Assembly (NCBI GenBank): GCA_945900755.1
Contig: CAMDKS010000014.1
Location: 1 to 64,000, forward strand
Direction: 5' to 3'
DNA from: Bdellovibrio sp. ZAP7
GTDB lineage: Bacteria; Bdellovibrionota_B; Oligoflexia; Oligoflexales; RGVZ01
Length of the DNA stretch: 64,000 nt
Position numbers and translations under genes: made by a program. The notes below the pieces were generated by a model, which worked only from the letters and a program-made list of their open reading frames with translations, searched no databases and was not told where the DNA came from. Shown here piece by piece: positions 1-64,000 of the stretch (the first letter of the stretch is position 1; each line of letters opens with the position of its first letter).

Positions 1-96
1 CCGCAACCGCAACCGCAACCGCAACCGCAACCGCAACCGCAACCGCAACCGCAACCGCAACCGCAACCGCAACCGCAACCGCAACCGCAACCGCAA
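1..96 (+). repeat. Hexanucleotide microsatellite (CCGCAA)16
   Basis: Sixteen perfect CCGCAA units begin at the window edge, so the true length is unknown. The reading frame of the gene that follows stays open through the whole tract and turns it into a Pro-Gln dipeptide repeat. The unit is a multiple of three, so gain or loss of units changes protein length without frameshift. Confidence 0.95.
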
Positions 97-504
97 CCGC
101 CGCGGTCTTTTACGGAAATGGACATCGGATCTGGCCTCTGGAATAAGATGGCTACCATTCATCAAACCAACCGTGATTTCAATTTCGACGCCAGTGATCT
201 GCGAGCCATCGCACAAAGATCTGGCTCTTCACAATTTGATTCGGCCATCTCCTTTTTGCAGGAGTGCCTCAACAGTCACGTTCAGCAATGGAATGAGTTT
301 CAATCGGCAGGCAGCCGCGGGCTGGCCACAAATTATAATACGTGGATCCTATATAATGGCTATTTAGGCCTTAAAAACGGCCAGGCTCACCTGTTGCGTG
401 CGATCGCCACGCTTCCACTGGATGTTCAGCAATCAACACAATTATCCATGTCAAGAATGGAAGAACACATGCGGAGTTTTGAGCAAACAGCTTTCAGAAG
501 ATAG
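1..504 (+). CDS. Protein with Pro-Gln repeat, 5' end outside the window
   Basis: The frame is open from base 1 to the TAG ending at 504. The visible part starts with a (Pro-Gln)16 tract and a short Pro-Pro-Arg linker, followed by about 130 residues with no repeat. An ATG at 118 exists but has no ribosome site and lies just after the repeat, so I read the repeat as part of the protein and the true start as upstream. The C-terminal part (SFTEMDIGSGLWNKMA onward) is polar, probably helical, has no membrane segment, and I do not recognise it. A Pro-Gln stretch often forms a rigid periplasm-spanning or linker segment, as in TonB-like proteins, but nothing else here shows such a role. Confidence 0.7.
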   Translation, partial: PQPQPQPQPQPQPQPQPQPQPQPQPQPQPQPQPPRSFTEMDIGSGLWNKMATIHQTNRDFNFDASDLRAIAQRSGSSQFDSAISFLQECLNSHVQQWNEFQSAGSRGLATNYNTWILYNGYLGLKNGQAHLLRAIATLPLDVQQSTQLSMSRMEEHMRSFEQTAFRR

Positions 505-44245: not shown

Positions 44246-45406
44246 CTAGTACCTAAAGATCGCCGCGACACCAGTAGTCGTAGGCATATTTTCTCTAGGA
44301 ACCACAACGACGCTTCCAGAATGCATGGCCGTGACACTCGCAAAATCATCTAGAAGATCATTAACATTTGGATCTTGCATATCTCCAAACTCTATACGCC
44401 CACCGTCGCTGTCCAGCTTGCCACCGACGCGCCGTCCTTGTTCAATAAGGAGTTGTTTCACTCGCCCTTGATGCAACGCACGCCCAATGGTGTGTAAACG
44501 ATCCGAAGCGACTCCAATCTCCTTGGCATCAACGTATTCACTAACTGACTTTGCGTATAAACTTTGAAAATATGGATTCATAATTTTCTTTGCCTCTTTC
44601 GCAATCTCCCCTACGGTCATGTTATCGGTGACGTGACGCATGCCCTCTTTAACCAAGTCGGTCAATTTTGTGTGGGCCCTGAAAGCACTTTGGTGTTCTG
44701 GAAGGGCGGCCAAAATTACGGGACAAACTGGCGGCCCGCCAACGAGCTTTCTTATGACGGAGTCGACAGCGCCAAAGTAGCGTTCGACATCCACCTTCCT
44801 CTTCCCGTCGACATCGTTGTAGTTATGAAAAATGACCCCAGCACGCTTCCCTGACGCCTGAAATCCTCGCCCGCCTGACACAGCTGTAACATGACGTTCG
44901 TGGTGACGCGGTTCTGAGTAATCATCTAAGCCTCCCAAAGATTCAGGTATCACAATAGGCATCAAACCATGGCGATCTCCCTTAAACAGCCTCACCTGCT
45001 TTAAACTTAAAGCCAAAACGAAGTAGCGATCTAGACCCTGAAAATCAAATATGAGTGGCTTAATATGAAATCGCTCCGAGACACTGGACCCTGCCTCGAA
45101 CGAACCATTAGCGTGAATCAACTTAAAGAAGCCTGGAGCGGAATACAATGCCACACCAGCGTCCTGACCGTTCCAAAAACTTAAATCCTGCGCTAAATGA
45201 TCGAGCGGCGCCATTACGCGCGAAGCTAAATCGTTTCCGTATCCACGCCGAAGAGATTTTTCGGCGGCTTTTCTCATGTTTTTGAATCTTATTGTACTCT
45301 CCCTACAGGACCTTTTCCCGTGGAATTTTGGCAAATAGACCGACACACAAGGGCCAGCTGTAATTGAACCCAATTCCATCAATATTGACTCTTTTGAAAA
45401 GTTCAT
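44246..45406 (-). CDS. baeRF-type release-factor-like protein
   Basis: A 386-residue protein. ATG at 45406 has GGGAG at seven bases; the frame is open further but without support. The closing DLLDDFASVTAMHSGSVVVV and NMPTTTGVAAIFRY is typical of the bacterial archaeo-eukaryotic release factor (baeRF) families, which share the middle and C-terminal folds of eRF1 and are proposed to act on ribosomes. The N-terminal part (SVYLPKF...RFKNMRKAAEKSL) also fits. It has a strong sigma-54 promoter and is divergent from the large RNA, which also has one. Confidence 0.82.
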   Translation of the reverse strand: MNFSKESILMELGSITAGPCVSVYLPKFHGKRSCRESTIRFKNMRKAAEKSLRRGYGNDLASRVMAPLDHLAQDLSFWNGQDAGVALYSAPGFFKLIHANGSFEAGSSVSERFHIKPLIFDFQGLDRYFVLALSLKQVRLFKGDRHGLMPIVIPESLGGLDDYSEPRHHERHVTAVSGGRGFQASGKRAGVIFHNYNDVDGKRKVDVERYFGAVDSVIRKLVGGPPVCPVILAALPEHQSAFRAHTKLTDLVKEGMRHVTDNMTVGEIAKEAKKIMNPYFQSLYAKSVSEYVDAKEIGVASDRLHTIGRALHQGRVKQLLIEQGRRVGGKLDSDGGRIEFGDMQDPNVNDLLDDFASVTAMHSGSVVVVPRENMPTTTGVAAIFRY

Positions 45407-45484
45407 TGAGTTGCTCCCACATAAAAATTGTTTGTGAAATTCCCGAGCATCGGAGCTATTAGACACGACGCCACAATCATGAGC

Positions 45485-45501
45485 TGCAATTATCGAGCCA
45501 A
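45485..45501 (-). promoter_or_regulatory. Sigma-54 promoter for the baeRF gene
   Basis: On the minus strand TTGGCTCGATAATTGCA, eleven of twelve conserved positions. Expected start about 45474, 68 bases before the ATG at 45406. Confidence 0.78.
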
Positions 45502-45754
45502 TGATTTTCGCCGTCAAAACTTTATTATTAGAAAAAAACCTCTTTCACGATAGTGTTTTTTAGCTATCAAAAAACGCAACCCATCTTGAATAAACAAACT
45601 CTCGCGTTAGTTGCGTTAATAGGGCCACAAAACATCAAACGGGCCAAACTGTAGAAAATGAAGCTATGAAAATTATTTTAAGTTTTTCGCAGCTTGCAAA
45701 GGGAAAGTACTGAAAACAAGAGAATAATGCCGACGAATAAACAGCTACCAACCG

Positions 45755-45771
45755 TTGGCACGCGTTATGCA
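45755..45771 (+). promoter_or_regulatory. Sigma-54 promoter for the large RNA
   Basis: TTGGCACGCGTTATGCA: full TTGGCACG block and GC at the right spacing. Expected transcript start about 45782, exactly where the first hairpin of the RNA begins. It faces away from the baeRF promoter 254 bases to the left. Confidence 0.78.
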
Positions 45772-45781
45772 TCATAGTTAA

Positions 45782-46579
45782 CGTGTTGGAAAGCAGCGAT
45801 GCTAACCAAAGACTTCAGTGGATGAAAGTTCCATCGGTAGAATTGTTCAGTTGCTACCGTAGCTAAGGCCACTGCTGGGATGGGTGACCATCTTAGTGGA
45901 TGCTGGCTGGAAAACTACTCCGAAGAAATCTGACTTAGGAGATAGGGCGAATTAGCAGGTCATAGCGAAAGCGAACCTGAAAGTGCCTAGTTCAAATCCT
46001 CAACAGAAGGGGATGCGAATGATAAGATTGCCGAGCCCAAACCAAACACGGCGAAGGCTAACACGAGTTGACAAGAACTGGAACGCAGCATCAACTTGAA
46101 TCTTTGTTGGACTTATGGATGACATGTTATGAAGGAGTCGAGGGAAAGCACGGAACCAGTTATGAATGTGTGCCTTATGTTTCTAGAGGTGACACAACCA
46201 GAGTGAGAAAAATGCGTTGGTGAAACAGCGCATGAAGCTTGAGATGGATTCATAAGTGGGGCGGTTGAGATCGGATAAGCGCAATTTTTATTGCGTGAGG
46301 ATCTCTGGGGTAAATATGATCGTCGCGAAATTCGGCGCTCATTTGTACGGCGGCATTCTTGGCTACTAGCCAGGGGGTGCTATGGGTGAAGGTAAACCAA
46401 GGACTCGCGGCGCGTATGTGAGGGAACAGCTTAAACGCCACTCATTCTTGGGAAGACATCATCAGTAGGAGTGCCGACCCTAAAGGCGTACTGGAGAAAT
46501 ACCAACGTACGCAAATGTGGAACGAGGTGGCGGTCATAAGCGGCGCTGAGAGGCGACGATGCAGACCACCACCTCTTTT
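45782..46579 (+). ncRNA. Large structured non-coding RNA, about 800 nt, unknown family
   Basis: No frame of credible length or ribosome site runs through this region. Stems visible by eye: AGCA-GCGA-TGCT (45792-45803); CGGTAG/CTACCG (45835/45854); CCACT/AGTGG enclosing GATGG-GTGA-CCATC (45869-45899); CAGGT/ACCTG enclosing GC-GAAA-GC (45956-45979); GAGATC/GATCTC enclosing CGCAAT-TTTT-ATTGCG (46267-46305); TGGCT/AGCCA (46360-46372); GCGTAC/GTACGC with TGG/CCA (46486-46512); final GAGGTGGCGGTC/GACCACCACCTC then TTTT. Three loops are GNRA, the hallmark of folded RNA. It is not RNase P, tmRNA, 6S or SRP RNA, and I find no group II domain V or group I core. Size recalls OLE, GOLLD or ROOL, but I cannot match it to them. 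Confidence 0.65.
46524..46579 (+). terminator. 3' stem and T run of the large RNA
   Basis: GAGGTGGCGGTC (46524-46535) pairs with GACCACCACCTC (46564-46575) with one mismatch, followed by TTTTCGTTTT. The 28-base loop can fold further. It looks like an intrinsic terminator with a long loop. Confidence 0.65.
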
Positions 46580-46654
46580 CGTTTTGGCGCACCAAAATTA
46601 AAAAATCACAGGGACAAAAGGGTCGCTTTGATAACTAGATTCTGATGAATAAGG

Positions 46655-46782
46655 TAAGATTCTGCTCAAAATGGTCGAAATCAAGGCGAGAGGAGCGGAA
46701 AAAGCGGAGTTTACTACTGTAAATGAGCATTTTGCCGCGACGAACAACGCAGAGTTCGGCCTTTTTCAGCAGAATCTGCTTA
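46655..46782. repeat. Imperfect palindromic element of about 125 bases
   Basis: Outer arms AGATTCTGCT (46657) and AGCAGAATCT (46768), next CAAAATG/CATTTTG, and centre TTTAC-TACT-GTAAA (46710-46723). The whole block is roughly its own reverse complement. It is like a MITE or dispersed palindromic repeat. The stop codon of the activator gene lies in its right end. Confidence 0.6.
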
Positions 46783-47868
46783 GGCAGTCCCAACAAGCAA
46801 TCCAAACTTCTCCAGACGATACCTTAGGGTGTGTCTTGTGACGTGCAGAAGTCTTGCGGCTTTTGTTTGATTGAACCGTGTCCTTTGGAGTGCTTGCACC
46901 AACATGCTTTTTTCAAACACATCGAGATCTATTCCATCTGTCGGCAATTTGAATTCGCCGTCATGGCAAAGTTCACCGCCATCGGATTGACTTGAAGGCG
47001 GAGGCAATGCGGTCTCGATCACGGGGCAGTAGTCTAAGCCAACGTGATCAGCAACGCCTAAATCAAGTATCGAGGTCGTAATAATATTCGGCTGATGAAA
47101 AATAATCGTTCTTTGCAACGTGTTTTTTAGCTCACGAACATTGCCGGGCCATTGGCCACGCATCAAAGACAAAATAGCATCGGCCGACACCGACGGCTTA
47201 GTTACACCGAGGCTATCTGATATTTTCACTAGCAGGTGCTCAACCAAAATTGGAATATCGGACTTGCGATCTCGCAACGGCGGCACAACGATCGGCACGA
47301 CATTCAGACGATAGTACAAATCGGCCCGAAAAGACCCACGGTTAATCTCCTCTTCCAAGTGACGATTTGTTGCTGCGACGATGCGTCCAGAAAACTCGAT
47401 ATCTTTGGTCCCACCCAGACGTTTGAACCTGCGGCACTCTAACACACGCAGCAATTTGGCTTGTAGTTTTGCCGGCATTTCACCGATTTCATCCAAAAAA
47501 ACAGTACCGCTTCCTGCGATTTCAAATAGACCAAGCTTTCGTTCTTTAGCATCGGTGAATGCTCCTCGCTCATAACCGAACAACTCACTTTCAAGTAGAT
47601 TTTCAGGAATACTAGCACAATTAATTTCGACAAAAGGATCTGACTCGTGCTGAGACCACTCGTGAATCGCCCTCGCCACGAGCTCCTTCCCTGCCCCACT
47701 CTCTCCGTGCACAAGGACCGTGTCGGCGCGACTTTCTGCCACTCGCAGGATGTTTTTTTTTAGCTTTAGCATTGAATCCGATTCTCCAATGATCGAAACT
47801 TTCACCCTTTTTGAAATGGATGAAATTATTGAAACGTTGTCATTCGCAATTGTTGTAGTTCGTTGCAT
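46780..47868 (-). CDS. Sigma-54-dependent activator without receiver domain
   Basis: A 362-residue NtrC-family AAA+ protein. I take the ATG at 47868, ten bases after AAGGAAC; longer starts add no domain. Walker A is [19 protein letters not shown], the sigma-54 contact loop [12 protein letters not shown], Walker [13 protein letters not shown], the arginine region [14 protein letters not shown], and a Fis-type helix-turn-helix closes the protein ([34 protein letters not shown]). The N-terminus of about 30 residues holds no sensor. It may be active whenever made, or be controlled by a partner. It is the nearest candidate activator for the sigma-54 promoters around it. Confidence 0.95.
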
Positions 47869-48273
47869 AAGTAATTGTTCCTTGTTCGTTAGCTTTTTTA
47901 GCTCAGTTAGCATTGTTCGGCTGTAGTATCTAAATCCAATCAAGATGTCCAGCACATGTCATCAAATATTTCAAAAAGTTTTTCTTCGCACTTTGTGCGC
48001 AAAAGCGCACGTCAGAATTCACATGGTTCACCGCCATAAATTATCCGCTCTGACGAATCGCCATGCGTAACATCGTCTTTTTCAAAATGTTTTTTTATTT
48101 TTCGCTCAATGGATTTCTACAAATATTTTGGACTGTTTGTTGCATGCCAAATTTAGTGAATCTGTCTTATTCAGCGCTTAAATGCACAACTTTAACGTAT
48201 TTTAACAGGAGATATATCATCCGTGTGGCAAAATCAAACAACCCAGATGACAAAGGACAAAGGAAAATGAACC
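47869..48273. other. Divergent regulatory spacer
   Basis: 405 AT-rich bases between the activator and the REC-GAF gene. Holds the sigma-54 promoter at 48128 and a palindromic stretch around 47985-48010 (CGCACTTTGTGCGC and GCGCAC). No credible gene. Confidence 0.5.
48128..48144 (+). promoter_or_regulatory. Sigma-54 promoter for the REC-GAF-like gene
   Basis: TTGGACTGTTTGTTGCA: GG-N10-GC with perfect TTGCA, weaker after the GG. Expected start about 48155, 119 bases before the ATG. Confidence 0.6.
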
Positions 48274-52381: not shown

Positions 52382-52834
52382 ATGAATCTGCAATATACGT
52401 TCAAAAAGATGGAAACCTCCGATGCATTAGCGGCACTCGCTATGGAAAAAATTGACTCCAAATTGAAAGCTTATGCAGGATCTTGTATTAACCCTCGCGT
52501 CACATTTTCGCGCGACCGCGACGTTTGGAAAATTCACTTCTCGATGAGGACTGGAGATGGGCACCTTATCGAAACAACGCACAGTGGTCCCAATGTTTTT
52601 TCAGAATTAGACATCATTGCTCAGCGCGTTGAAACTCAGCTTCTTCGCCACAAAGAAAAGCAGTCCTCAGGCAAAGGAAATTCGGGGCTGAGTGAGGCCA
52701 CTGCAAAGTGGGGCCGTCCGCAGAGATCGCTTTCCTGGTCCGAAGGCTCTGACTACGACGCGCCAGTGGACGCCGGAGATGTACTCAAATTCGAAAACGC
52801 AAGACGAGGTGCCCCATGGAAAAAACAGGGCTAA
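52382..52834 (+). CDS. hpf: Ribosome hibernation promoting factor HPF/RaiA family
   Basis: A 150-residue protein with AAGGGAG before the ATG. Residues 1-95 match the S30AE fold of short HPF/YfiA (MNLQYTFKKMETSDALAALAMEKIDSKL onward, split here by type; FSELDIIAQRVETQL at its end). HPF binds the decoding centre and shuts down ribosomes in starvation. A 50-residue polar tail follows that is not the dimerising domain of long HPF. In many bacteria this gene lies next to rpoN; here it stands in a sigma-54-rich cluster instead. Confidence 0.88.
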   Translation: MNLQYTFKKMETSDALAALAMEKIDSKLKAYAGSCINPRVTFSRDRDVWKIHFSMRTGDGHLIETTHSGPNVFSELDIIAQRVETQLLRHKEKQSSGKGNSGLSEATAKWGRPQRSLSWSEGSDYDAPVDAGDVLKFENARRGAPWKKQG

Positions 52835-55160: not shown

Positions 55161-58100
55161 TTAGTAGCTAACTTCAATTTTATGGCAACCCTGATCGTCG
55201 ATTAGTCGCAATCCTTTTTCCGTTTGAGCGACGCCGTCAACTGTCAAGAGTCCTTTTTTACCGACGGTAAGCGCAGGTTGAAAAATAATTTCATACATTG
55301 TACTTCTGAAGCAATAGTTCACCTGAAACTCAGTCCAGGTATCGGGTACGCATGGCGCGAAAAATAAGGTGTCGATTTCAAGACGAATTCCAAGCAAAGA
55401 CTCCAAGATTAACCGGTACATCCAACCAGCCGACCCCGTGTACCAGGTCCACCCTCCTCGCCCAGCATGAGGTTCTACAGCATAAACATCGGCTGCGACT
55501 GCGTAGGGTTCAACTTTATATCTAGCCAGTCCTTCTGGCGTTGCCGCGTGATTTAGCGGATTGATCATGGCTAGAATTTCCCATGCTCGCTCTTTATCGC
55601 CCAACGCTGCAAAGGCCATGGCATTCCAAATGGCAGCATGCGTATACTGGCCCCCATTTTCTCTCACTCCGGGCACATAACCTTTGATGTACCCAGGATT
55701 CAAAGCCGACTTATCAAATGGTGGGTCAAAAAGCTTAACGAGCTGTCGGTTTCTATCGACAAGTCGACGATCAACAGCCATCATTCCTTGACGGGCGCGT
55801 TTCGAGTCTCCAGCTCCAGAAAGTACAGCCCAACTCTGGGGCAATGAATCAATTTGGCACTCGTCACTTTCTTTTGAGCCAAGTGGCTGTCCGCCATCAA
55901 AATAGGCGCGTCGGTACCATTCGCCATCCCAGCCATGTTTTTCAATATTTTCAGTCAATAGTTCCGCTTGAGTCAAGCAAGAAGCAGCAAACGGATTGTC
56001 GCCATATTTCTTCGCCACTTCTGAGAATTTCTGGAGTACCTCATAGAGAAAAAAAGCGAGCCAAACACTTTCCCCTTTCCCGTGTTCGCCAACCAAATTC
56101 ATGCCGTCGTTCCAATCCCCACAACCGATAAGAGGCAACCCATATTGACCAAACTGAACACGTTTAATAGCCAAGACGCAGTGTTCATAAACGGTTGCGG
56201 ACCTCTCTGAGCGGCGATGAAGATCACAATACGCCTCCTCGTCAGGTTTTAACTGCCGCCCCTCGACAAATGTCACGCTCTTGTCTAAAATTCCATAATC
56301 ACCAATACCGAGAACATAGCGACTCGTTGCCAGTGGCAACCACAAATAATCGTCAGAAAAATGTGTTCGAACACCTCGCCCAGATGGGGGGTGCCACCAG
56401 TGCTGCACATCCCCCTCTAAAAACTGATGCCCCGCACATCGAATAATGTGATCCCGCAATAGTCTGGGCCTAATATGAAGTAATGCCATTGCGTCTTGTA
56501 ATTGATCCCTAAACCCAAAAGCACCGCCAGATTGGTAAAATCCACTTCGCGCCCACATTCGCGAAGACAAAGTTTGATACGTCAGCCAACCATTGGCGAG
56601 GACATCAATGGATGGGTCGGGAGTTTTGATTTGGACGCAACCTACAATTTGATTCCAAAAGGTCTTAACCTCCTGCAGCGCAAGCTGTGCTGACGACACC
56701 GATCCAAATCGCCGAATGAGTGTTCGAGCATCGGCTTCGTCTGATCCGACCCCTAAGATGAAAACGAGTTCACGTTCTTGGTCTTCGCCGAATTCAAAAA
56801 TTGTTTGCATCGCTGCGCATGAGTCCATCGCAGCTCCCACCCGACCTGATAGATGAGCTCGACTCATTGCCGATGGCGCCGACGAGTGGCCATTTCGTCC
56901 AATAAATTCGCTACGATCGCCGGTGACGGTGCGTACTTTTTCACTCGTGTCAAAAAACGCCACGCGAGCACCAAAATCAGGATGAAATGGATTTCGCGCA
57001 AAAATAGCTGAATTTGTCGGATCAATTTCGGTAGTAACATGCAAAAGTGACTTAGACCGCAACTCGCCTAGAACCCACTCGCAATAACCTGTAACCGAAA
57101 TCCGACGAGGTCGGCCGGTCACGTTTCGTAGTTTAAGAATCACGATTTTAACCGGAGCGTCAACAGCAACAAAAGTAGTTAACTCGGATTTAATTCCGAT
57201 ATTGGTATGTCGAAACGCTGAATAGCCGAATCCATGAATGGTGGTATACGGCCCTGAGCCACGCAATGGCCATGGACACGGCGACCAAAATTCACCGCTT
57301 TCCTCGTCGCGTAAATAAAAGCATTCACCACTTCCGTCACTAATAGCATCATTCTTCCAAGGCGTCAGACGAAACTCATGAGCATTTTCGCACCATGTAT
57401 AGGCGGATCCAGCTTCTGAGACTACGGTCCCGAAATAAGGATTGGCGATGACATTGACCCAAGGTGCCGGCGTCACTGAAGAACGAGTTGTTGTGATTTG
57501 ATACTCACGACCATCCGCTGAAAATCCGCCCAACGAATTTTGGAACAACAGGTCACTTCGAAATTTCTTTGATGCAGGTGGCGCCATCATTTGTAGTGAT
57601 TTTTCGCTGGCGCTGTTTGTTGACCTATCTGTCAATAAGTCGGTCAATTTATCGATGCCACGAGTTCTCAAGGGTATAAGAGCCCGGACTTTCGCAGGAC
57701 TTCGAATCCTGCGATCAATTTGCTCTTCTAGAGTGCCGCCAGCATCTGTAAACACGGCGCGTGCTATTGTTTGGACAAGAATTCGATCCTCCTCCGACAA
57801 CTGCTCAGGCCTACGAACAAAGATTCCGCCAGCCTTGTCTACTTGCAAGGACGCATTCTCCGCAGCTACTATTGACGTGATGCGGTCATTTAAATCTTGT
57901 CGATACCCTGTGTCTTCTTCGTTCCAAATCACAAGGTCAACGATCAAATTCATTCTACGCCAAAAGCCATGAGCTTGCACCAGCTGGCGTACGATTTCAA
58001 TCCCATCTTGACTTGCAATTTTAAGTAAAAAAATCGGCAGATCACCAGAAATTCCTTGGCCCCAAAGTGCTGATTGACCGCGCCTATTTTTAGTTAAAAT

Positions 58101-61100
58101 GCTTCCGGCAGCTCGGTAAAGTGGGTTTGTGTAAATAATTGAATTGGCAAGCCGAATGTATAAAAGGGAGTCGCACTCCATTACGTTGGAAAGCTGCAAA
58201 GCCACCTGCCGATGTGTTCTGGCTATGCTAAAAACTCGGTCGGCGATGTGCCGATCATGGTATATCTCTACCAAATCTAGGGCCGCAGCCCTCGTCTGCC
58301 CAATTCCAGTAATCATATGAACACGCGCCGTTTGATCTGGTTCGATTTGGACCCGACATCTAATGGCCACAATCGGGTCTAACACGGACCCATCATGCCC
58401 TCCGAGTGAACCACTTGGGTCTGCCTTGGAACCGAAATCAGCGTCCATAACAATCGGATCAATGACACTTCTCCCGCGCCCGATAAAGTGCGACCGATCC
58501 GTTTCATAAGAGATCTCACCTGTAATTGTGCCATGAACAGCCATCAAATGAATCATTGTCGGCGTTGTTTCATGATCGGATCTAGGTCGACGCGTGCAAA
58601 GAATGGCCTGTTTTCCTGCGATAATTTCGGTTTGGACAAAAAGATTGCTAAATGCCGGATGCGCCTCATCATTCGACTGCGGCGCCAGCACAACCTCGCA
58701 GTAACTAGTGAATTCAATCGTACGTCGATGGGAGGACAGGTTCTTGAAGGTGAAACGGCGAAGTTCAATATCATCTTCGGCAGAAACGGTAATTTCTGTA
58801 TGCATCTCAATATCATGATCTTTACGCCGAAACTCAGCCTTTTCTAGCGGGAAAATGGCTTTGTAATCGTCTGCCGGCGCAAGAGTTGGTTGATGAGCGG
58901 CAGACCAAACAGCCCCGCTATCGACATCTCGAATATAACAAAACGTACCCCAATTATCGCAGGTCGGATCTTCACGCCAACGACTCACCGCAAGATCATT
59001 CCATCGACTGTAGCCGCCCCCTGAATTGGTTAACATAACCGAATAGCGCCCATTTGACAAAAGATGCACTTCCGGGCGAGGAGTATGAGGTGTGTGAAGA
59101 ACACGCAAGGCAACCTCGACTTCACCACCTAAGCGCGCGACATTCGAGACCTCCGGTGCGTGCGGATATAGCATGGCCGCCTTAGGCACCCGCTCATGAA
59201 GCAGAAGCTCCGTTGCCTGAAACTGGGGATCAGATTGAAAGCGCCTCTGCATTTTTTGACCAAGCAGCTGATAGGCCAGTGCCATAAAACTCATGCCTTG
59301 GTGATGTGCCATGTAGGAGTGAATAATGACGTGATTTTGGTCGCTACGAAGCCTTGATGGCGTGTAATCGATGGCTTCATAAAATCCATAACGACCTTCA
59401 AATCCCAAGTCAGTCATCCGCTGCATATTGTCTGATACCGCGGTTGGCGCTATCATCACTGCCATGATTGAAGCGTAGGGTGCTATAACCAAATCTTCGG
59501 CAAGACCTCGCTTGAACCCAAGGCCAGGTACACCAAATGCGCTATATTGATAATTAAGTTGCAGGTCTGTGGAATTATAACCAGATTCTGAAATTCCCCA
59601 TGGAACTCCACGTTGGGCTCCATATTCAATTTGGCGTTTAATAGATGTCTCATAGGTTTGATCAAGCAATGTATTTTTAAACGTTGGCATGACCAAAAGA
59701 GGCATTAAATATTCAAACATTGATCCGCTCCAAGACAGTAGAGTCGGCTCACCTTTCCATGCTGTAAGTAGTCGTCCTAGTGCAAACCAATGTTCCTGAG
59801 GCAGTAAGCCTTGAGCGATTGCAACGAAACTCCCAAGCCGAGCCTCCGACGCGAGTAAGTCGTAGTAACCGTCATCGCGTCGATGTTCGGTGACGTTGTA
59901 GCCAATGGCAAGTAGGCGACGAGCACTACTGTAAAGGAAGCCGTATTCGACAGTCGCGAGTTCTTCACATCGCTGTGCCAGTTCCGCCATCGTCGCCATC
60001 GCCTCGGCAGCAAAGCGACTTGCCTGCTCTGTCAAGCCTCGAAGCTCAAGTAGCCATATACGATCTGGTGTGTCGTCTCTAAGAAGGTTATCGATAAGAG
60101 GCAGAAGATTTGATTCCAGTTGGGCGACATCGCGTATCGTTGGCATCCGGTTCAAATCAAATATTTTCGAAAGACTTTGACTATTTTTTGGAGCGTTCAG
60201 TCGTGACCACGGAGCAAAAGTATCCAAAGGCCCGTCAAGGCAACTTTGACATTGTTTAAGCAGAAGATGAATCGACAATTGGGCATCTTGACTAAGGATA
60301 TCAGGTGGTTTTTGGGCTAGGTTTTTCAGGTCCGTCAAAACCAGTTTTAACTGGTTTGCGAGCGAAATCGACTCGCTTAAGGTTTCGGGAGGATTTTCAA
60401 GACTTCGAAGCACCCCCATAAACTTCGACCGAACAACAGGCGACGAAGTTTCGGAATCTAAAAATACTGCAATGGAGTCTTTCAAACCCAGAAACATCGC
60501 GGTGGGAATAACTTTAGATTCCGATAGTTCAATTAGACCTGGCCGAAGGGTCAACAAAAGTCCTGAAAGATTACCGCTATCCACGGTAGAAACATATCTT
60601 GGATGGAGCGGTTTAAGAGACTGAGTATCGTACCAATTATAGAAATGGCCCTTGAATCTTTCTAATTTTTCCATCGAACAAAATGTGTTTGAAGTCCGCT
60701 CAAGGAGATCTTCCATGGATAAATATCCAAAATCGAAAGCCGATAAATTTGCTAACAGAGAAAGCCCAATGTTCGTTGGCGATGTTCGATGAGCGATGAC
60801 GGGCGCGGGATATTCCTGAAAATTATCTGGTGGAAGCCAGTTATCATCTGGGCCAACGAATGTTTCAAAAAATTGCCAAGTTTTTCGTGCGATTCGGTGC
60901 AAGTTGCTTATTTGTGGAGGCGTCAACTTGTCCTTTTCTGGTGGAATGTTTCGACTTAAGAAATAGGCTAGGCCAGGAGACACCAACCAGAACGCCAAAA
61001 ATGGGAACGCGACGCCAAGAGCTGAAGAACCTAATAAGTTTCCGTTTATTAGGGCGCCGAGAACGACTAGAGAAATTGCCGGCGCGGCAATCATAAACCG

Positions 61101-64000
61101 ATAGAATTGAGCCAACCCCCCGTCAATTGTATTTCGTGGATCCGTTGACGAACGCCAAGCCAAAAGAGATTTGTGTGTCACGGCCATTCGAACTAAAGAT
61201 TTGCAGATCGAATTTAAATTCACAACAGCGTCAAACGGCAGAAAAACAAGAGAAAGTCCGGAAGTTGCAAAACTTTTGCCTGCAATCCACAACGAATTTT
61301 GAAGATGAGACACAATATCCAATTCTTCAGACTTTCTAAAGAACTCATTTAGTGATGCGAGGAACGCGGGAACAAATTGCAAAACCAGAATGACGCATGT
61401 CAAATACCAGTGATTAGGCTGACTAAACCACGCAAACAACAGCAGTGCAAGGGTAGCAATCGGAATAAAACTGCGACGAAGGTTATCGAAAATTTTCCAT
61501 TTTGATAGTCGAGACAAAGGATTTCGAAGGCGAGCTCCCGTAGCCGAGGGGACCGTTGGAAAAATCCAACTAATAATCTGCCAGTCGCCTCGGATCCACC
61601 GGCTGCGTCGACTGGCATCTTCCGCAAAATGACTAATATGTTCTTCGTACAATAGAACATCACTGACGAGACCACATCGGCTATAACACCCCTCTAATAG
61701 ATCATGACTTAGAATCAAATTCTCAGGCAGCGCCCCCGAAAGAGATTGCGTAAACGCGTGAACATCGTAAATTCCTTTACCAATGAAAGAACCCTCTTGA
61801 AATAAGTCTTGATACACATCAGACACTGCGCGGGTATAGGGATCTATTCCCGGATCGCCGGCATACAGGCGAACAAACCACGAGCGCTGTGACCCAGGCA
61901 AACTGACCGCAACCCGCGGCTGAAGAATACTAAATCCTTCAATGACGATACGTCCGCTTGTTCCCGGGATACTCTCGGAGAGCACTGGATGGTTAAGCGG
62001 ATGCGCCATGGTTCCAACAAGCTTGTGAGCCGCATCTCTCGGCAGCATCGTATCCGTGTCTAGGGTTATGACATATTTTACATTCGGTAACGCGGCAATA
62101 TTTCCCGCAATGACCGAAAAAAAAGTCTCTGGACGCCTTTCGGGAGGCTTGACTGACAAATAATTTCCGTTATTGCGCGCAATTAAAAGTTCATTCAAGG
62201 CCTCGAGTTTTCCGCGTTTCCGCTCATATCCCATCCACACCTTATCATGAGCGTTCCAAACTCGGGAACGGTGGAGAAGAAAAAAAATGTCGCCCCCGTT
62301 GGCATCTTTATTTCGATACCGCTCGTTCAAGGTGTCGACACCTAAGCAGACGGCCCGGCAAAGAGCTTCATCGGCAGGCATTTTCTCATTTGGCGCGTCG
62401 ACGAAGTCCGTGAGGAGTGCAAAATGCAAATTTTGTTCGCGATTAGCCAGGTATCGTATTTCAATTCCTTCCAACAGTGACGCGATATTTTCTTGGCTAA
62501 CCAGCATGCTGGGTACAGCCACAAGGGTTCTGTTTTCCGAAGGTATTCCCCGTGAAAAATCAAGTCGCGGAAGTAATTGAGGCGATTTAAATAACGTCAC
62601 AGCTCGATTTACGATCTCCATGGCCATTTGACTCGTACACAATAGAACAATAGACATCACCAATATTTCTGTTGGTAACGCTACACTTTCTAGGTATAGG
62701 ACATGACCAATAAAACCGGCTAGTGCCACAGTAATTAAAGTTAATGAGAAAAAGTAAAGCCAGCCAGTGCTCCGCATGAGTACGGTGTTGAAAAGAAATT
62801 TTAGTTGGGCATGTTGCGTCGATTTGTCTCGCAGCGTTTTTTTCAGGCGAGGTAGGCCGCGGCCAACAAGGTAATAGCCGACATGACCGAACCTACCGTT
62901 TGGCATTTTTTCGACAAACCCTTGTTCCGCTAGTTTTACAGCTTCATGGGCGATTTCCCATTCCGAATAGGTACTTTTTTTTGACAGTCGTTCAATCACA
63001 TGACGATATTGATCGCGGGTTGCAAAGTCCATAAGACTATATATATTTGCGGGATCACGCGTTAAATGCTTATCAACAAAGCCCAAGGATTCTACAAACT
63101 CCCGCCAATCCATAGCCCCCAAAAAACGTAGACCGCCTATACTATCGGAAACAGACAATTGATTCGCAGCTTGCTGTTGTACTTCCAATTGTACGCAGTG
63201 AAGGGTTGTCCGACCAGTGACAGAAAGCTGGTTCTCAAGCCACGTAATCGCAATATCAAAACTTGGGCTATGTCCATGCATCGTACGCGCTAATTCGGCA
63301 ACAAAAGAATTGGACATAGGAGGGTTTGTACGGGCCATATCCGCCACAGTAACGATCAAATTTTTTGGATCATTTTCCACTGTTTGGAACAATTGTTCCT
63401 GCCAATGGATCGCCCTATTGCGGTCACTCAATCCAACAACAACCCGCGCCGCAACGCGCCGTAAATTTCCAATCAAGGCAAGCCGCAACATAATTGGGAG
63501 GGCCCAAAATTCACCCAAAGTCAGAGGCGTCACCATTTGGTAGGCATCGACAAAGGCCGTAGTATTTTCACTGTCAACACGACCGTCACTATGCGCAATA
63601 ATTGCCAGCGCGATGTCATATATACGCGGTATTCCTGATGTATATAATCCTGAACCCACTAGATGTGGGAGCTCTCGACTATACCCTATTGGTAAATGCC
63701 GGCGCGCCGTCCTGATTTGTTCTTCAATGGCGTGAAAATTATCAAGGAGCCACTCACCGGCTGGCGAAACACCACGTCCGCCGCACACTGCCGCATTCAA
63801 CTGCTCGTAGCAATGAATTAGAATGCGTTCATTTTCTGCAAGCTTTGGTAGTAGCTGGTCTTGACCAAGGCCAGTGCCGATCTCGTGTTTGGATGCGAGT
63901 GCCTTTGCGTAGCGCGCCAACTGCTCCAAGTTAAAGAGTTCCGACAAGATTGGGTCGTCGTCGCGATCAGGGAGAATTATTTTTGGCGTCCGGCTCCGTT
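55161..64000 (-). CDS. ndvB: Cyclic beta-1,2-glucan synthase (NdvB/ChvB type), 5' end outside the window
   Basis: At least 2945 residues; the frame stays open to the right edge past a TTG at 63947, so the start is probably beyond it. Order: N-terminal helical part; membrane segments (WLYFFSLTLITVALAGFIGH region); a GT84 glycosyltransferase domain with TLDTDTMLPRDA and SRWIRGDWQ; more membrane segments; a glucoamylase-like domain (WGISESGYN, YMAHHQGMS); two GH94 supersandwich halves; and a GH94 catalytic barrel with IGCGDWNDGMNLVG near the end. These enzymes make, elongate and close cyclic beta-1,2-glucan for the periplasm, which helps osmotic adaptation and host contact. Length fits the family. 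Confidence 0.9.
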   Translation of the reverse strand, partial: RSRTPKIILPDRDDDPILSELFNLEQLARYAKALASKHEIGTGLGQDQLLPKLAENERILIHCYEQLNAAVCGGRGVSPAGEWLLDNFHAIEEQIRTARRHLPIGYSRELPHLVGSGLYTSGIPRIYDIALAIIAHSDGRVDSENTTAFVDAYQMVTPLTLGEFWALPIMLRLALIGNLRRVAARVVVGLSDRNRAIHWQEQLFQTVENDPKNLIVTVADMARTNPPMSNSFVAELARTMHGHSPSFDIAITWLENQLSVTGRTTLHCVQLEVQQQAANQLSVSDSIGGLRFLGAMDWREFVESLGFVDKHLTRDPANIYSLMDFATRDQYRHVIERLSKKSTYSEWEIAHEAVKLAEQGFVEKMPNGRFGHVGYYLVGRGLPRLKKTLRDKSTQHAQLKFLFNTVLMRSTGWLYFFSLTLITVALAGFIGHVLYLESVALPTEILVMSIVLLCTSQMAMEIVNRAVTLFKSPQLLPRLDFSRGIPSENRTLVAVPSMLVSQENIASLLEGIEIRYLANREQNLHFALLTDFVDAPNEKMPADEALCRAVCLGVDTLNERYRNKDANGGDIFFLLHRSRVWNAHDKVWMGYERKRGKLEALNELLIARNNGNYLSVKPPERRPETFFSVIAGNIAALPNVKYVITLDTDTMLPRDAAHKLVGTMAHPLNHPVLSESIPGTSGRIVIEGFSILQPRVAVSLPGSQRSWFVRLYAGDPGIDPYTRAVSDVYQDLFQEGSFIGKGIYDVHAFTQSLSGALPENLILSHDLLEGCYSRCGLVSDVLLYEEHISHFAEDASRRSRWIRGDWQIISWIFPTVPSATGARLRNPLSRLSKWKIFDNLRRSFIPIATLALLLFAWFSQPNHWYLTCVILVLQFVPAFLASLNEFFRKSEELDIVSHLQNSLWIAGKSFATSGLSLVFLPFDAVVNLNSICKSLVRMAVTHKSLLAWRSSTDPRNTIDGGLAQFYRFMIAAPAISLVVLGALINGNLLGSSALGVAFPFLAFWLVSPGLAYFLSRNIPPEKDKLTPPQISNLHRIARKTWQFFETFVGPDDNWLPPDNFQEYPAPVIAHRTSPTNIGLSLLANLSAFDFGYLSMEDLLERTSNTFCSMEKLERFKGHFYNWYDTQSLKPLHPRYVSTVDSGNLSGLLLTLRPGLIELSESKVIPTAMFLGLKDSIAVFLDSETSSPVVRSKFMGVLRSLENPPETLSESISLANQLKLVLTDLKNLAQKPPDILSQDAQLSIHLLLKQCQSCLDGPLDTFAPWSRLNAPKNSQSLSKIFDLNRMPTIRDVAQLESNLLPLIDNLLRDDTPDRIWLLELRGLTEQASRFAAEAMATMAELAQRCEELATVEYGFLYSSARRLLAIGYNVTEHRRDDGYYDLLASEARLGSFVAIAQGLLPQEHWFALGRLLTAWKGEPTLLSWSGSMFEYLMPLLVMPTFKNTLLDQTYETSIKRQIEYGAQRGVPWGISESGYNSTDLQLNYQYSAFGVPGLGFKRGLAEDLVIAPYASIMAVMIAPTAVSDNMQRMTDLGFEGRYGFYEAIDYTPSRLRSDQNHVIIHSYMAHHQGMSFMALAYQLLGQKMQRRFQSDPQFQATELLLHERVPKAAMLYPHAPEVSNVARLGGEVEVALRVLHTPHTPRPEVHLLSNGRYSVMLTNSGGGYSRWNDLAVSRWREDPTCDNWGTFCYIRDVDSGAVWSAAHQPTLAPADDYKAIFPLEKAEFRRKDHDIEMHTEITVSAEDDIELRRFTFKNLSSHRRTIEFTSYCEVVLAPQSNDEAHPAFSNLFVQTEIIAGKQAILCTRRPRSDHETTPTMIHLMAVHGTITGEISYETDRSHFIGRGRSVIDPIVMDADFGSKADPSGSLGGHDGSVLDPIVAIRCRVQIEPDQTARVHMITGIGQTRAAALDLVEIYHDRHIADRVFSIARTHRQVALQLSNVMECDSLLYIRLANSIIYTNPLYRAAGSILTKNRRGQSALWGQGISGDLPIFLLKIASQDGIEIVRQLVQAHGFWRRMNLIVDLVIWNEEDTGYRQDLNDRITSIVAAENASLQVDKAGGIFVRRPEQLSEEDRILVQTIARAVFTDAGGTLEEQIDRRIRSPAKVRALIPLRTRGIDKLTDLLTDRSTNSASEKSLQMMAPPASKKFRSDLLFQNSLGGFSADGREYQITTTRSSVTPAPWVNVIANPYFGTVVSEAGSAYTWCENAHEFRLTPWKNDAISDGSGECFYLRDEESGEFWSPCPWPLRGSGPYTTIHGFGYSAFRHTNIGIKSELTTFVAVDAPVKIVILKLRNVTGRPRRISVTGYCEWVLGELRSKSLLHVTTEIDPTNSAIFARNPFHPDFGARVAFFDTSEKVRTVTGDRSEFIGRNGHSSAPSAMSRAHLSGRVGAAMDSCAAMQTIFEFGEDQERELVFILGVGSDEADARTLIRRFGSVSSAQLALQEVKTFWNQIVGCVQIKTPDPSIDVLANGWLTYQTLSSRMWARSGFYQSGGAFGFRDQLQDAMALLHIRPRLLRDHIIRCAGHQFLEGDVQHWWHPPSGRGVRTHFSDDYLWLPLATSRYVLGIGDYGILDKSVTFVEGRQLKPDEEAYCDLHRRSERSATVYEHCVLAIKRVQFGQYGLPLIGCGDWNDGMNLVGEHGKGESVWLAFFLYEVLQKFSEVAKKYGDNPFAASCLTQAELLTENIEKHGWDGEWYRRAYFDGGQPLGSKESDECQIDSLPQSWAVLSGAGDSKRARQGMMAVDRRLVDRNRQLVKLFDPPFDKSALNPGYIKGYVPGVRENGGQYTHAAIWNAMAFAALGDKERAWEILAMINPLNHAATPEGLARYKVEPYAVAADVYAVEPHAGRGGWTWYTGSAGWMYRLILESLLGIRLEIDTLFFAPCVPDTWTEFQVNYCFRSTMYEIIFQPALTVGKKGLLTVDGVAQTEKGLRLIDDQGCHKIEVSY

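What the first reader, a model, noticed from the sequence alone, without database searches (positions are those of the whole stretch)
45782..46579. Large structured non-coding RNA of unknown family with its own sigma-54 promoter
About 800 bases without a credible gene fold into at least eight hairpins, three with GNRA loops (GCGA, GTGA, GAAA), and end in a terminator-like stem. A near-consensus sigma-54 promoter is placed so that the transcript would start at the first hairpin. RNAs of this size and complexity are rare and usually have catalytic, scaffold or particle-forming roles. I cannot match it to OLE, GOLLD, ROOL, group I or II introns, RNase P or tmRNA.
Basis: partly seen in the sequence, partly recalled or inferred. 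Interest (0 to 1): 0.92.

Follow-up and report, generated by a model that had tools for sequence, protein, structure and literature searches.

The report
Retired group II intron RNA gene
A bacterium from an uncultured freshwater lineage appears to have turned the RNA of a self-splicing mobile intron, stripped of its recognisable catalytic domain and its reverse transcriptase, into a stand-alone gene switched on by the sigma-54 system, beside a gene related to proteins that put ribosomes to sleep.

Summary
In detail: 45783-46580 is a large, structured, non-coding RNA with a near-consensus sigma-54 promoter at 45755-45771. The claim of "unknown family, not a group II intron" does not. Rfam group-II-D1D4-4 (RF02003) matches 45816-45970 at 61.5 bits (cut-off 49), and matches all four homologues found. 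The transcript would start within 0-3 nt of a group II-like 5' end (GUGUU). It is not a working intron by sequence: no domain 5 by Rfam or by a domain-5 model made from introns of this order, no reverse-transcriptase ORF, no 5' exon. Four of the five genomes that carry it show no domain 5 and no RT anywhere. It is under selection: 71% identical between two species whose four-fold codon sites are saturated (29%) and whose flanks align no better than shuffled sequence; helices taken from the Rfam family covary. Promoter and RNA occur together in two genera of one Oligoflexales family (5 of 10 genomes), at two kinds of locus: divergent from a gene related to the hibernation factor Balon, or downstream of HPF/RaiA. 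Best reading: a group II intron RNA exapted as a sigma-54-controlled stress RNA. Its molecular role is unproven.

The parts
45755..45771 (+). sigma-54 promoter TTGGCACGCGTTATGCA (-24/-12); predicted start at about 45782-45783
   Evidence: conserved in G001, G006, G007 and G009 while other upstream DNA is not; the strongest sigma-54 site in each homologous locus
45783..46580 (+). the non-coding RNA gene; begins GUGUUGG (group II-like 5' end), ends in the terminator-like stem
   Evidence: conserved block 71% identical to G001 with unalignable flanks; fold z -5.15
45786..45809 (+). 5' hairpin TTGG..GCA-GCGA-TGC..CCAA, nearly invariant in five genomes
45816..45970 (+). group II intron domain I (Rfam RF02003 group-II-D1D4-4), 61.5 bits, full-length model match
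   Evidence: homologues 52.7-80.9 bits; covariation on the Rfam structure
46031..46057 (+). motif CCGAGCC-N12-GGCGAAGG, shared with the RT-bearing intron G025:C10 and with no other kind of locus fetched by then
46267..46305 (+). helix in domain 2/3 position, GAGATC/GATCTC (GAGGCC/GGCCTC in G007), with a covarying inner hairpin
46316..46342 (+). second covarying helix (ATGA/TCAT; GTGAGG/CCTCAT in G001; GGGTCAG/CTGACCT in G007)
46486..46512 (+). domain-5-like hairpin: lower stem, AC bulge, GAAA-type loop; triad position AGG (CGG in G001) instead of AGC/CGC. Possible dead domain 5; not statistically supported
   Evidence: by eye; negative
46524..46575 (+). 3' terminator-like stem GAGGTGG/CCACCTC + GGTC/GACC, followed by TTTT
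44246..45406 (-). divergent gene related to the ribosome hibernation factor Balon (baeRF family 3); ORF open to 45517, likely start near 45406
   Evidence: Pfam PF18845 E 1.1e-25; PDB 8RD8 chain B E 2.9e-6; NCBIfam NF052287 E 2.7e-33 over full length but below its cut-off
45485..45501 (-). sigma-54-like site in front of the likely start of the Balon-related gene (inside the upstream end of the long ORF)
46780..47955 (-). convergent PspF-like sigma-54 activator (AAA + HTH_8, no receiver domain); ortholog near the RNA in G001
52382..52834 (+). HPF/RaiA-family gene in the same neighbourhood
   Evidence: Pfam PF02482

Best explanation
This is a stand-alone host RNA gene derived from a group II intron. 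A sigma-54 promoter lies so close to the intron's first nucleotide that the transcript is made as a ready-cut intron-like RNA, with no 5' exon and with a terminator-like stem where domain 6 would be. The domain-I scaffold and further helices are kept by selection. The catalytic domain 5 is absent or degenerate and the reverse transcriptase is gone, so it most likely no longer splices or moves. The most likely function is a structural or protein-binding (RNP) RNA made when sigma-54 activators fire under starvation or stress, acting in the ribosome hibernation programme with the Balon-related and HPF/RaiA genes beside it. Shown here: homology to domain I, conservation, covariation, a linked conserved promoter, absence of a recognisable domain 5 and of RT. 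Inferred: transcription, loss of catalysis, stress induction, RNP role, link to hibernation.
For: RF02003 full-length match and matches in all four homologues. GUGUU start within 0-3 nt of the predicted start. Motif shared with an RT-bearing intron of the same order. No domain 5 by RF00029 at the locus nor by a local model with filters off. G001, G006, G007 and G009 show no RT and no RF00029 in the whole genome. RNA 70.7% identical to G001, four-fold sites 22/76 and 15/52, flanks at shuffled level. Covariation on the independent Rfam structure 0.330 vs 0.199 shuffled, 0 of 500, slid controls at most 0.148. Promoter and RNA conserved as a unit at two kinds of locus. Neighbours: Balon relative in g1, HPF in g2; Balon genes are reported next to RaiA and Hsp20 genes (PMC10901736).
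Against: No transcript data. Only five genomes, two of them with a complete RNA; G006 and G007 are near-identical there. Outside the Rfam match, homology to intact introns rests on one motif and position; an HMM of that part found nothing. The RNA is patchy even within the family (5 of 10, though several genomes are incomplete), and G005 and G008 lack it at the corresponding sites. The link to hibernation is by neighbourhood only, and the activator gene is not linked to it in g2.
Confidence: 0.6

Rival explanations
1. A working ORF-less group II intron that splices or moves with help from an RT elsewhere; the sigma-54 promoter merely lies at the insertion site.
For: Domain I and a GUGUU end are kept. 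ORF-less bacterial introns exist (PMC4424553). The own genome carries pieces of a true intron on C23 and C7.
Against: No domain 5 by three searches; no 5' exon; the same promoter at two unrelated kinds of site; no RT and no domain 5 anywhere in G001, G006, G007, G009.
Confidence: 0.08
2. A derived ribozyme that still does chemistry with a variant domain 5 (46486-46512), comparable in spirit to circularly permuted group II RNAs.
For: Hairpin geometry (AC bulge, GAAA-type loop, five-pair spacing) and an A facing C in the 3' stem are kept in G000 and G001.
Against: Triad reads AGG/CGG with its invariant C and partner G changed, and the lower stem opens; the domain-5 model does not recognise it; an alternative CCAGUA/UACUGG pairing competes for the same bases.
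Confidence: 0.12
3. A dead intron fragment without function.
For: Most bacterial group II copies are truncated or inactivated (PMC4424553).
Against: 71% identity where neutral sites are saturated, covariation, conserved promoter.
Confidence: 0.03
4. An unrelated structured RNA whose domain-I resemblance is chance or convergence.
For: Only about 155 of 800 nt match Rfam; the rest has no significant homology to introns.
Against: Full-length model matches of 56.6-80.9 bits in four homologous loci and 52.7 bits in one cut by a contig end, GUGUU start, shared motif with an intact intron.
Confidence: 0.07

Closest known systems
Mobile bacterial group II introns of Rfam type D1D4-4 (for example G025:C10 in the same order)
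   Same: Domain I, GUGYG-like 5' end, shared CCGAGCC/GGCGAAGG motif
   Different: No recognisable domain 5, no RT ORF, no 5' exon; own sigma-54 promoter and terminator-like stem; kept together with its promoter in a bacterial family
Circularly permuted group II RNAs ('T-large', PMC8637638)
   Same: About 800-900 nt, ORF-less, stand-alone group II derivatives of unknown role
   Different: Those keep active domains 5-6, placed upstream of domain 1, and are catalytic; here nothing upstream is conserved but the promoter and no domain 5 was found
Degenerate organellar group II / group III introns (Euglena; PMC4424553)
   Same: Loss of domain 5 and of the encoded protein
   Different: Those are still removed from mRNAs by trans factors; this is an independent gene
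raiA, OLE, GOLLD and ROOL RNAs
   Same: Large structured bacterial ncRNAs; raiA RNA is named after a hibernation-factor gene (own knowledge)
   Different: No Rfam match to any of them

Membership tests
Group II intron | Domain I scaffold | tested here: met
   RF02003 61.5 bits over all 138 positions, all homologues above the gathering score
Group II intron | Catalytic domain 5 with AGC/CGC triad | tested here: not met
   No RF00029 match; local domain-5 model, filters off: no match to this hairpin; triad position AGG/CGG in the best by-eye candidate
Group II intron | 5' GUGYG and 3' AY ends | tested here: inconclusive
   5' GUGUU present; no clear AY end, the RNA ends in a stem and U run
Group II intron | Domain 6 with bulged branch-point A | tested here: inconclusive
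   3' stem has a conserved A facing C but reads as a terminator
Group II intron | Intron-encoded RT/maturase (not universal) | tested here: not met
   No ORF above 63 aa inside; no PF00078 in G000, G001, G006, G007, G009
Group II intron | Self-splicing between exons | not testable with these tools
   Needs in vitro transcription; the sequence gives no 5' exon
Circularly permuted group II RNA | Domains 5-6 upstream of domain 1 | tested here: not met
   No domain-5 match in 45600-46900 or near the RNA in the window scan; upstream DNA not conserved beyond the promoter
sigma-54-controlled gene | -24/-12 site at the right distance, conserved | tested here: met
   transcription itself not tested

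The most novel reading that the evidence does not exclude
A bacterial lineage has domesticated a group II ribozyme RNA as a sigma-54-induced, non-splicing structural RNA of the ribosome hibernation programme, working with Balon- and HPF-type factors. As far as I know there is no such case in bacteria, where domesticated group II parts have been reverse transcriptases.
Probability: 0.35. Interest if true: 0.9.

Novelty: new variant of a known kind. Interest (0 to 1): 0.74.

Why it matters
Group II introns are seen as selfish elements in bacteria and as ancestors of spliceosomal RNAs. A maintained, promoter-driven group II RNA that lost its catalytic domain would be a bacterial parallel to the step in which intron pieces became host RNAs, and would give a candidate RNA partner for ribosome hibernation. 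A review of group II evolution notes that bacterial surveys rely on RT ORFs and domain 5 (PMC4424553); derivatives like this would be missed by such surveys.

Tried and rejected
Local domain-5 model with filters off: the domain-5-like hairpin is not recognised, so it is reported as suggestive only. HMM of the RNA 3' of the Rfam match against intact introns: nothing significant. Searching the missing 3' halves in contig-broken relatives with a 3' model: only G000 and G001. Shared upstream activator-binding motif: none convincing. Linkage of the RNA with the PspF-like activator: close orthologs in G000, G001, G005 but G005 lacks the RNA, and g2 genomes have only about 45-47% relatives, so it is not a required partner. 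Circularly permuted group II RNA: rejected, no upstream domain 5-6. A first RNAalifold pairing on two sequences was unreliable and not used.

Full report
Setting. The window lies in contig C14 of a 2.9 Mb genome. Homologous loci come from lake metagenome-assembled genomes titled Oligoflexales or Pseudobacteriovorax (that the samples are lakes is read from the isolate codes). The finding sits between a baeRF/Balon-related gene (44246-45517, minus) and a PspF-like sigma-54 activator (46780-47955, minus).

Checking the observation. No ORF longer than 63 aa lies inside the region and none is conserved as an open frame in the closest relative. The RNA strand folds 5 standard deviations better than shuffled sequence, although with only 20 shuffles. 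The three GNRA loops are there, and in the second genus they are replaced by other GNRA loops (GUGA to GUAA, GAAA to GUGA). The sigma-54 site TTGGCACGCGTTATGCA (45755-45771) places the start at 45782-45783, where the conserved RNA begins with GUGUU. In the four other genomes the same site precedes the RNA at the same distance plus one base, and nothing else upstream aligns across all of them. Sigma-54 consensus sites are enriched in the genome (76 vs 16 for the reversed pattern) and in the window (6 vs 0.45 expected).

What it is. Rfam assigns 45816-45970 to group-II-D1D4-4, a model of group II intron domain I, at 61.5 bits against a cut-off of 49. The homologues score 80.9, 79.0, 56.6 and 52.7 bits (the last is cut by a contig end). 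Genuine RT-bearing introns of the same order hit the same model; one of them, G025:C10, also shares the motif CCGAGCC-N-GGCGAAGG further 3', which among the 147 loci fetched by then occurs only in it and in the RNA loci. Beyond this, an HMM of the 3' two-thirds found no significant match in introns. So descent from a group II intron is well supported for the 5' part and positional for the rest.

What it lacks. No domain 5 was found by Rfam or by a model built from 16 domain 5s of introns from this order, run without filters. By eye, 46486-46512 has domain-5 geometry (AC bulge, GAAA-type loop, five-pair spacing), but the triad position reads AGG (CGG in G001) instead of AGC/CGC and the base of the stem is open. 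A competing pairing CCAGUA/UACUGG uses part of the same bases. There is no RT ORF and no 5' exon. In G001 (97% complete, 8 contigs), G006, G007 and G009 neither an RT nor a domain 5 was found anywhere, so trans help from a resident intron is unlikely there. These searches used thresholds and, stricter filters, so very diverged cases could be missed.

Selection. Between G000 and G001 the flanking protein genes are saturated at four-fold sites (22/76 and 15/52 identical) and the intergenic flanks align no better than shuffled sequence, while the 801-nt RNA keeps 70.7% identity, more than either neighbouring gene at the DNA level (66.3 and 49.5%). On the Rfam-derived structure, which does not come from these sequences, five homologues give a covariation score of 0.330 against 0.199 for shuffles (0 of 500) and at most 0.148 for slid partners. 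The sequences are few and related, so this is supporting rather than decisive. In the 3' half, helices at 46267-46305 and 46316-46342 are kept with different sequences in G000/G001 and G007.

Distribution. The 5' model finds the RNA in five genomes of one family (two genera) and nowhere else among the 58 genomes of the phylum that are held, apart from one weak hit (19 bits) that is a true RT-bearing intron. A 19-base exact motif scan over 84,980 species found only four contigs, the four homologues already known. In G000 and G001 the RNA diverges from a Balon-related gene; G001 has Hsp20 next door. In G007 and G009 it follows the HPF gene and its terminator directly; in G006 one gene lies between. 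G008 has HPF without the RNA, and G005 has the activator and Hsp20 without the RNA and the Balon relative. Promoter and RNA therefore behave as one gene that has changed place.

Function. The Balon paper reports that Balon genes most often sit next to the RaiA gene, with Hsp20 another common neighbour, and that Balon can bind ribosomes together with RaiA (PMC10901736). The window gene matches the Balon structure chain 8RD8_B (E 2.9e-6; accession confirmed) and an NCBIfam hibernation-factor model over its full length, below that model's cut-off. That the RNA sits beside one hibernation factor type in one genus and beside the other in the sister genus is the best functional clue. It is an association in five genomes, not proof. 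The mechanism I commit to: sigma-54-driven synthesis under starvation or stress of an already-ended, non-splicing group II scaffold that serves as a structural or RNP RNA in ribosome hibernation. Transcription, induction, partner and target are inferred.

Comparison. The nearest published relative in kind is the circularly permuted group II RNA (PMC8637638), also ORF-less, stand-alone and of unknown role, but catalytic and with domains 5-6 placed first. Literature searches in the held library found no exapted bacterial group II RNA without domain 5; most subscription papers are not covered.

Noticed in passing
G000:C23:5-122 (L072) and G000:C7:349-402 (L073): Ends of a genuine group II intron in the same genome: 5' part with GTGCG and RF02003, and a 3' part with an intact domain 5 (AGC triad) only about 290 nt after domain-I-like sequence, which suggests an ORF-less intron; no RT was found in the assembly.
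   Followed up: partly
window 24335, 28999, 33544, 45501, 45755, 50021: Six sigma-54 consensus-like sites in 64 kb (0.45 expected), several in front of genes, together with two sigma-54 activators and HPF: this looks like a sigma-54 stress-regulon island.
   Followed up: partly
L129 (G005:C63): At the site where G001 has the phosphoribosyltransferase gene, RNA, Balon relative and Hsp20 gene, G005 has only the Hsp20-like gene next to the activator: the RNA and Balon relative seem to come and go together.
   Followed up: partly
L026 (G014:C45:230216): Group II intron with an RT reading frame that is cut short by a stop; apparently decaying.
   Followed up: no
window 55161-63998 (-): An open reading frame of about 2945 aa that runs off the window end.
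   Followed up: no
window 1-504 (+): Reading frame that begins with a long PQ dipeptide repeat.
   Followed up: no
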